Shown here one piece after another: positions 40,356-41,404 of a stretch of 64,000 nucleotides of DNA (position 1 is the stretch's first letter; each line of letters opens with the position of its first letter). This DNA comes from Candidatus Nucleicultrix amoebiphila FS5 (GTDB lineage: Bacteria > Pseudomonadota > Alphaproteobacteria > Caedimonadales > Nucleicultricaceae), in the NCBI RefSeq assembly GCF_002117145.1, contig NZ_CP008743.1:62001-126000 (forward strand), in the 5' to 3' direction. The notes under the pieces were generated by a model. That model saw only the letters and a list, made by a program, of their open reading frames with translations. It made no database searches and was not told the DNA's origin. The translations under genes were made by a program, and so were the position numbers.

Positions 40356-40979
40356 TTACTGATCGTTTGATTTTGTTTTAAAGTACTTGTAAAACAAAAA
40401 AATAATTATAAAAGCTGCCCAAGCATAGTTAGAATACATCAAGAACTGATTGCTGTTTATGTTAAATTTTGGGGTATCTATATTTTCTAGTATTTCTCTA
40501 AAAGAAAAAATCCCTATGAGAGATGATAAAATCAGCTGAGGCCAAATCATAAGGTGAACGATAAACTTATCGATAGGCCGCTCTGCCGGCTTTAAACCTT
40601 TTAAGATTTTGACTTTAATTGTTGAAAAGTAATAGCGCGTTCCAAAAAGCCCAAGGCCAACAATCAAGAGTATCCGGGGGAAGGGTATTAGAGCTAAGAA
40701 GGTGTAATTAATAACTAAAATATGAGATAAAACGCCGGTGTATAAAAAAAATAATTGAAAAAGAGCGGCTTCCAAATACATGCGTCTATAGGCCAGCCAA
40801 TAGGACGAGAAAAAAGTCGCAGGCCAATTCCAATAAAAATGCCGCTCTCCCGTCAAGAGTTTCTCAGCGGCTTGTTGGTAATAGCGATCAGCTTCATTAC
40901 CATCCCCCTTTTCTATATAATTCAATAAAGTTTGTTTGGATATGCGTGCCATAGTTGCGTCCTGATTCATAAATTTCAA
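40356..40979 (-). CDS. DUF2628-type membrane protein
   Basis: This 207-residue protein has a soluble N terminus and about four membrane helices. The block ERHFYWNWPATFFSSYWLAY, followed by RRMYLEAAL, matches the wording of DUF2628 proteins (F-N-W-A-A-F-F-...-W-x-x-Y-R-K-M-Y). The function is unknown. It converges on the MsrQ-like gene with 6 bases between. ATG at 40979 is used; Met4 or Met10 are possible later starts. Confidence 0.72.
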   Translation of the reverse strand: MKFMNQDATMARISKQTLLNYIEKGDGNEADRYYQQAAEKLLTGERHFYWNWPATFFSSYWLAYRRMYLEAALFQLFFLYTGVLSHILVINYTFLALIPFPRILLIVGLGLFGTRYYFSTIKVKILKGLKPAERPIDKFIVHLMIWPQLILSSLIGIFSFREILENIDTPKFNINSNQFLMYSNYAWAAFIIIFLFYKYFKTKSNDQ

Positions 40980-41019: not shown

Positions 41020-41369
41020 CGCCTTATAAAAGCGAGGGGCTTCTGTTGCCCGGTGCCCCTCCGACCGCGTTATTGAGAATTAAGCAGCAGCTGCTACAGC
41101 TGGTGCAGATCCCGCACCCATTGAAGGGGTTGGAACCGTAAAATTCTTAACAACGAATGCAGTATTTTTAGCTGCACTTATTTGATATAGCCCGATAACG
41201 GCGGTACAATGCCGGGCAAAAACCATACCTTTCAACGCACGTCGATCCTATTTCACCCCCACCAAAAGGGCCTATTTTTAAGGCCTTTTTGGTGGAGGCG
41301 CCGGGTACCGCCCCCGGGTCCGTATCGCCTATTGCGTATAGCGTTTATCACCATAGTCAGTTACCTGAC
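41020..41369 (-). ncRNA. ssrA: transfer-messenger RNA, circularly permuted two-piece form
   Basis: The tmRNA rescues stalled ribosomes and tags the nascent chain for proteolysis. The acceptor piece comes first (about 41369 to 41290): T-arm ACCCGGGGGCGGTACCCGG, then CGCCTCC, A and an encoded CCA (41292-41290). A hairpin spacer follows. The coding piece starts at 41260 with GGGGGTGAAATAGGATCGAC; its GGGGGTG (41260-41254) pairs with CGCCTCC (41300-41294) to form the acceptor stem. The resume codon GCA is at 41175-41173, preceded by AATAAGT. An open frame of 31 codons runs to TAA at 41082-41080. The tag begins AAKNTAFVVKNF and ends GSAPAVAAAA. A GAGGGGC/GCCCCTC stem follows the stop. Outer ends are approximate. 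Confidence 0.93.
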
Positions 41370-41375
41370 ACTATT

Positions 41376-41404
41376 AGTATAGTGATGTTTAATGAAAATT
41401 GCAA
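41376..41404 (-). promoter_or_regulatory. sigma-70 promoter of ssrA
   Basis: On the minus strand TTGCAA (41404-41399) and TATACT (41381-41376) are separated by exactly 17 bases. The predicted start at about 41369 is just before the tmRNA acceptor piece. Confidence 0.8.

What the first reader, a model, noticed from the sequence alone, without database searches (positions are those of the whole stretch)
41020..41404. Two-piece tmRNA with an unusually long 31-codon tag frame
Sequence shows a permuted tmRNA: CCA-ended acceptor piece, hairpin spacer, then the coding piece whose 5' end pairs with the acceptor strand. The open frame from the resume codon to the stop is 31 codons (start AAKNTAFVVKNF, end GSAPAVAAAA). 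Known tags are usually 8-20 residues, and alphaproteobacterial ones normally begin A(A)NDN and end ALAA or AVAA. Here only the Ala-rich end is kept. A long tag could carry an extra signal or unusual ClpX/SspB handling.
Basis: partly seen in the sequence, partly recalled or inferred. Interest (0 to 1): 0.68.

Follow-up and report, generated by a model that had tools for sequence, protein, structure and literature searches.

The report
Two-piece tmRNA with long degradation tag
This is a genuine bacterial ribosome-rescue RNA (two-piece tmRNA) that encodes a 31-residue protein-destruction tag; the length is about three times the usual, but all relatives of the same order in which the gene was found have tags of 22-35 residues, so it is a lineage trait rather than a one-off oddity.

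Summary
On the minus strand (about 41031-41382) lies a circularly permuted alphaproteobacterial tmRNA gene (ARAGORN; Rfam alpha_tmRNA, 230.9 bits), the only one in the genome. Its resume codon sits at the standard place and the frame AAKNTAFVVKNFTVPTPSMGAGSAPAVAAAA (31 codons, TAA) is right. 'Unusual' needs correcting. In 300 decoded alphaproteobacterial tmRNAs, tag lengths fall into two classes, 9-16 and 20-40 residues, none of 17-19. All nine tmRNA-bearing genomes of the window's order have 22-35; others reach 39-40. On an RpoB tree, long tags cluster (5-6 changes against 20-23 in shuffles). Long tags often hold a second Asn-x-Asn motif like the ANDN start of short tags (36 of 45, about 15 expected); the window's tag lacks one, though its first nine residues resemble ANQNNAFVV / ANDNNAFVA. 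The genome keeps SmpB and a full SspB adaptor. Most likely it is an ordinary trans-translation tag read by ClpX through its Ala-Ala end, with an N-terminal extension that docks or once docked SspB (inferred). In Arg/Lys-rich long-tag genomes SspB is markedly more acidic, suggesting co-evolution but from few independent lineages. It belongs to an extended-tag variant that I did not find described.

The parts
41290..41352 (-). acceptor (tRNA-like 3') piece, T arm and 3' CCA (CCA at 41292-41290); the 5' end of the mature piece is not known (models start at 41352, 41382 or 41408)
41261..41289 (-). intervening spacer (29 nt, AAAAGGCC...GGCCCTTTT hairpin) expected to be cut out by tRNA processing enzymes
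   Evidence: removal inferred from the known two-piece tmRNA pathway
41031..41260 (-). coding piece; its 5' GGGGGTG pairs with CGCCTCC of the acceptor piece (7 bp, G3-U70 wobble)
41176..41180 (-). [quoted passage not shown]
   Evidence: role from PMC2481249
41080..41175 (-). tag reading frame, resume GCA to stop TAA: AAKNTAFVVKNFTVPTPSMGAGSAPAVAAAA
41031..41062 (-). 3' element GGAGGGGCACCGGGCAACAGAAGCCCCTCGCT, conserved in alphaproteobacterial tmRNA (terminal pseudoknot region)
   Evidence: and sequences of relatives; pseudoknot from established knowledge

Best explanation
A functional two-piece (permuted) alphaproteobacterial tmRNA. Shown: the gene, its fold, the standard position of the resume codon, a 31-codon frame ending in Ala-Ala, SmpB and SspB elsewhere in the genome, and tags of 20-40 residues as a lineage trait of this order and several other alphaproteobacterial lineages. 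Inferred: the transcript is cut at the spacer, charged with alanine, brought by SmpB to ribosomes stalled at mRNA ends, and adds Ala plus the tag. ClpX (or ClpA) grips the hydrophobic ...AVAAAA end, and the N-terminal extension is an enlarged adaptor-docking and linker region derived from an ANDN-type SspB site that in many relatives exists twice. In the window's own tag that site has diverged, so docking there may be weak.
For: Gene and frame. Same order: tags of 22, 25, 28, 29, 29, 31, 32 and 35 residues. Bimodal lengths in 300 tmRNAs: 9-16 (253) and 20-40 (47), none 17-19. Long tags cluster on an RpoB tree (6 changes vs 22.5 in shuffles; 5 vs 20.3 without long branches). Internal N-x-N motif in 36 of 45 unique long tags vs 15.4 +/- 2.8 in shuffles. 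Coding constraint over both motifs of ANDNxAFVAANDN tags: codon-position changes [3,3,15] and [3,5,13]. All nine tags of the order end in Ala-Ala; 298 of 300 overall. SspB present in 75 of 80 genomes including this one, with an ...IISLDSFRKK tail like Agrobacterium 2nys and a core matching Caulobacter-type SspB 2qas/2qaz. SmpB in 10 of 10 genomes of the order. No second copy of the tag DNA in the genome, so no sign of a repeat-element insertion.
Against: No expression, processing or tagging data. The window's tag has no internal N-x-N motif, so SspB docking on it is not shown; its similarity to the double-motif tags is modest (5 of 8 compared positions, p about 0.005). The middle of the tag varies greatly between families, which also fits weak constraint. 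I did not test for ClpX, ClpA or Lon in the genome.
Confidence: 0.7

Rival explanations
1. The extension is functionally neutral: only the last few Ala-rich residues matter, and tag length drifts upward by small duplications and slippage in lineages with reduced or host-associated genomes.
For: Middle of the tag differs strongly between families; the window's tag has no second docking motif; length differs within the order (22-35). [quoted passage not shown] coli (PMC2481249).
Against: No tag of 17-19 residues among 300 and strong clustering on the tree argue against free drift. Internal N-x-N motifs far exceed shuffles, and both motifs keep their residues while third codon positions change.
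Confidence: 0.3
2. The long tag marks a switch of protease or adaptor (for example Lon or ClpA), as in Mesoplasma/Mycoplasma, where an atypical tag is read by Lon.
For: Precedent: the M. florum ssrA tag, atypical in length and sequence, is read by Lon (PMC8138137). No ANDN motif in the window's tag.
Against: SspB is retained with its C-terminal tail and the Ala-Ala end used by ClpX is kept; in mollicutes the switch accompanies absence of ClpXP. ClpX itself was not searched for here.
Confidence: 0.12
3. The 31-codon frame is a misreading: the true resume codon or stop lies elsewhere and the tag is short.
For: A frame this long is open in 23% of shuffles; ARAGORN did misread some relatives.
Against: Resume offset and UAAGU context are standard; neighbouring frames give no Ala-Ala end; all relatives give long frames from the same resume position.
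Confidence: 0.03

Closest known systems
Alphaproteobacterial two-piece tmRNA (Rfam RF01849 / RF04321; Caulobacter type)
   Same: Permuted gene order, acceptor piece first, spacer, coding piece; same T arm, 7-bp acceptor stem, resume context and 3' element; Ala-Ala tag end
   Different: Tag of 31 residues instead of the common 9-16; no ANDN start; sspB is not the next gene (SspB at genome 490989, tmRNA at 103031)
Extended double-motif tags of other alphaproteobacterial families (e.g. ANDNNAFVAANDNSVVAGEAIAA, ANQNNAFVVACNDNAPIAIAA)
   Same: Over 20 residues, same resume context, Ala-Ala end; first nine residues alike
   Different: The window's tag lacks the second N-x-N motif and has a Pro/Gly/Ser-rich middle
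Mesoplasma/Mycoplasma ssrA tags
   Same: Tag atypical in length and sequence (PMC8138137)
   Different: Unrelated sequence; those hosts lack ClpXP and use Lon; here SspB and the Ala-Ala end are kept

Membership tests
Alphaproteobacterial two-piece tmRNA | covariance-model match over the full model above the gathering score | tested here: met
   230.9 bits vs 50, model 1-355 of 355
Alphaproteobacterial two-piece tmRNA | permuted order with CCA-ended acceptor piece upstream of the coding piece, 7-bp acceptor stem with G3-U70 | tested here: met
   GGGGGTG / CGCCTCC-ACCA
Alphaproteobacterial two-piece tmRNA | resume codon at the standard distance with A at -4, and a stop-terminated tag frame ending in small hydrophobic residues | tested here: met
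   offset 76 (others 73-80), UAAGU-GCA, ends AVAAAA-TAA
Alphaproteobacterial two-piece tmRNA | ANDN tag start (usual, not defining) | tested here: not met
   starts AAKN; 243 of 253 short tags start ANDN
Alphaproteobacterial two-piece tmRNA | SmpB partner in the genome | tested here: met
   PF01668, E 2e-54 at genome 362238
Alphaproteobacterial two-piece tmRNA | processed two-piece RNA that tags proteins in the cell | not testable with these tools
   needs RNA and mass spectrometry data
Double-motif extended tag | length of 20 or more residues | tested here: met
   31
Double-motif extended tag | second internal N-x-N motif | tested here: not met
   none in AAKNTAFVVKNFTVPTPSMGAGSAPAVAAAA
Double-motif extended tag | N-terminal module like ANxNxAFVV | tested here: inconclusive
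   5 of 8 compared positions identical to ANQNNAFVV after the first Ala, shuffle p 0.0055

The most novel reading that the evidence does not exclude
Several alphaproteobacterial lineages carry an enlarged trans-translation tag made of two adaptor-docking modules in front of one ClpX degron, co-evolving with SspB (including a charge swap: Arg/Lys-rich tags with acidic SspB), and the window's organism holds a diverged form of it.
Probability: 0.3. Interest if true: 0.6.

Novelty: new variant of a known kind. Interest (0 to 1): 0.4.

Why it matters
The ssrA tag is the textbook bacterial degron, and in most of the alphaproteobacteria surveyed it is a peptide of 9-16 residues starting ANDN. A tag class of 20-40 residues, spread over many families and often carrying the adaptor-docking motif twice, would make the division of labour between adaptor, linker and ClpX signal testable by natural variation, and would supply new tag-adaptor pairs. 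It also warns that ARAGORN misreads or misses the longest tags.

Tried and rejected
Insertion of a repeat element into the tag: rejected, no second copy of the tag DNA in the genome. Special RNA structure in the tag: fold z-score -1.72, not notable. Tag growth at the expense of the region after the stop: not seen in the 37 loci I could measure (about 28-36 nt in most, with both short and long tags; rank correlation 0.25, p 0.14). SspB loss explaining the missing ANDN: rejected, SspB is present. Phylogenetic test of the SspB charge swap: only 2-3 independent pairs, no power. The first RpoB tree held one wrong reading frame (G042) and some long branches; rebuilt without them. Literature searches found tag length mentioned (mode 10, minimum 2 residues; PMC11915505) but no discussion of long alphaproteobacterial tags; the 2004 tmRNA website paper was not held, so prior mention cannot be excluded.

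Full report
Observation. ARAGORN and Infernal both place a permuted tmRNA on the minus strand of the window: tag AAKNTAFVVKNFTVPTPSMGAGSAPAVAAAA, alpha_tmRNA 230.9 bits over the whole model. It is the only such gene over the cut-off in the genome. The acceptor stem GGGGGTG/CGCCTCC has the G3-U70 pair and is followed by A73-CCA; the spacer is 29 nt; the resume GCA is 76 nt after ATAGGATCGAC and follows UAAGU. The 133 tmRNAs on which ARAGORN and my first anchor search agreed have the resume codon at 73-80 nt, nearly all at 74-78. The -4 adenosine is the main frame-setting base in E. coli (PMC2481249). An open frame of this length is not rare by chance (23% of shuffles); an open frame ending in Ala-Ala is (0.1%).

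Relatives. The order as held has ten genomes; nine have the gene. Tags read from the sequences: 22, 25, 28, 29, 29, 31 (window), 31, 32 and 35 residues. ARAGORN missed the 35-residue tag and cut one 29-residue tag to eight. So the long tag is a lineage trait.

Class survey. I fetched tmRNA loci from about one genome per family of the class, oversampling low-scoring ones, plus named contigs, and decoded 300 tags with ARAGORN and a profile-anchored reading. Lengths are 9-16 in 253 and 20-40 in 47, with none of 17-19. In the class sample 40 of 186 are long; this is not an unbiased frequency. The three tags over 33 residues (35, 39, 40) were each missed or truncated by ARAGORN. Short tags start ANDN in 243 of 253. 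Long tags hold an internal N-x-N in 36 of 45 unique sequences against 15.4 +/- 2.8 in shuffles; the sequences are related, so this is an effect size rather than a strict probability. Clear double forms are ANDNVAFVAANDNTVVEVAVAA, ANDNNAFVAANDNSVVAGEAIAA and ANQNNAFVVACNDNAPIAIAA; among the first kind most changes are at third codon positions. The window's tag has no internal N-x-N, but its first nine residues match this class best (p 0.0055 for the best match, 0.0049 for the sum).

Tree. On RpoB long and short tags need 5-6 changes against 20-23 in shuffles. The window's order lies with other long-tag lineages, while ANDN-double tags also appear inside a mostly short-tag part, so more than one gain, or an old gain with losses, is implied. 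Deep nodes are weakly supported and the placement of long branches is unsure.

Partners. SmpB is in all ten genomes of the order. SspB is in 75 of 80 surveyed genomes, including the window's, whose protein aligns with Agrobacterium 2nys and with SspB 2qas/2qaz and ends IISLDSFRKK. In many of the alphas surveyed sspB directly follows the tmRNA (coordinates); here it is far away (genome 103031 vs 490989). In genomes whose tag has a net charge of +5 or more, the SspB core is far more acidic (mean -10.7 against -6.0 for other long and -3.9 for short tags), and at least two of three sites (window SspB 56, 68, 86) are acidic in 10 of 13 against 2 of 144. The sites were chosen from the same data and only 2-3 independent pairs exist, so this is a lead. 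It suggests that long tags are still read by SspB in those lineages.

Mechanism. Shown: gene, frame, partners, lineage distribution. Inferred: processing, charging, tagging, ClpX recognition of the Ala-rich end, and an adaptor-docking origin for the extension. For the window's own tag the docking function is uncertain because the motif has diverged. Neutral lengthening is the main rival.

Novelty. The gene is an ordinary member of the alphaproteobacterial two-piece tmRNA family with a variant tag. The published database paper gives 10 as the most frequent tag length and 2 as the shortest (PMC11915505). I found no description of the long alphaproteobacterial class, but the library is incomplete and the individual sequences may well be in the tmRNA database.

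Noticed in passing
G005 and G006 (loci L413, L003, L416): Two near-identical species by RpoB: G005 (4 contigs, 99% complete) has smpB and sspB but no detectable tmRNA, while G006 has tmRNA but no detectable SspB. Assembly gaps not excluded.
   Followed up: partly
L220, L225, L231, L272, L275, L296, L299-L302, L314, L102, L141: Arg/Lys-rich long tags (6-11 basic residues, almost no acidic ones); where the SspB gene could be read, their SspB cores are unusually acidic.
   Followed up: partly
L230 (G014), L285 (G161), L006 (G007): Tags of 40, 39 and 35 residues that ARAGORN truncated or missed; automatic annotation probably under-reports long tags.
   Followed up: yes
window 40356-40979 and genome 490989: sspB, often the downstream neighbour of ssrA in the alphaproteobacteria surveyed, is displaced in this genome; the downstream neighbour is a 207-aa hydrophobic ORF.
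   Followed up: no
L319 (G105): A second, lower-scoring tmRNA (72.8 bits, tag ANDNSPVAMAA) beside a standard one in the same genome.
   Followed up: no
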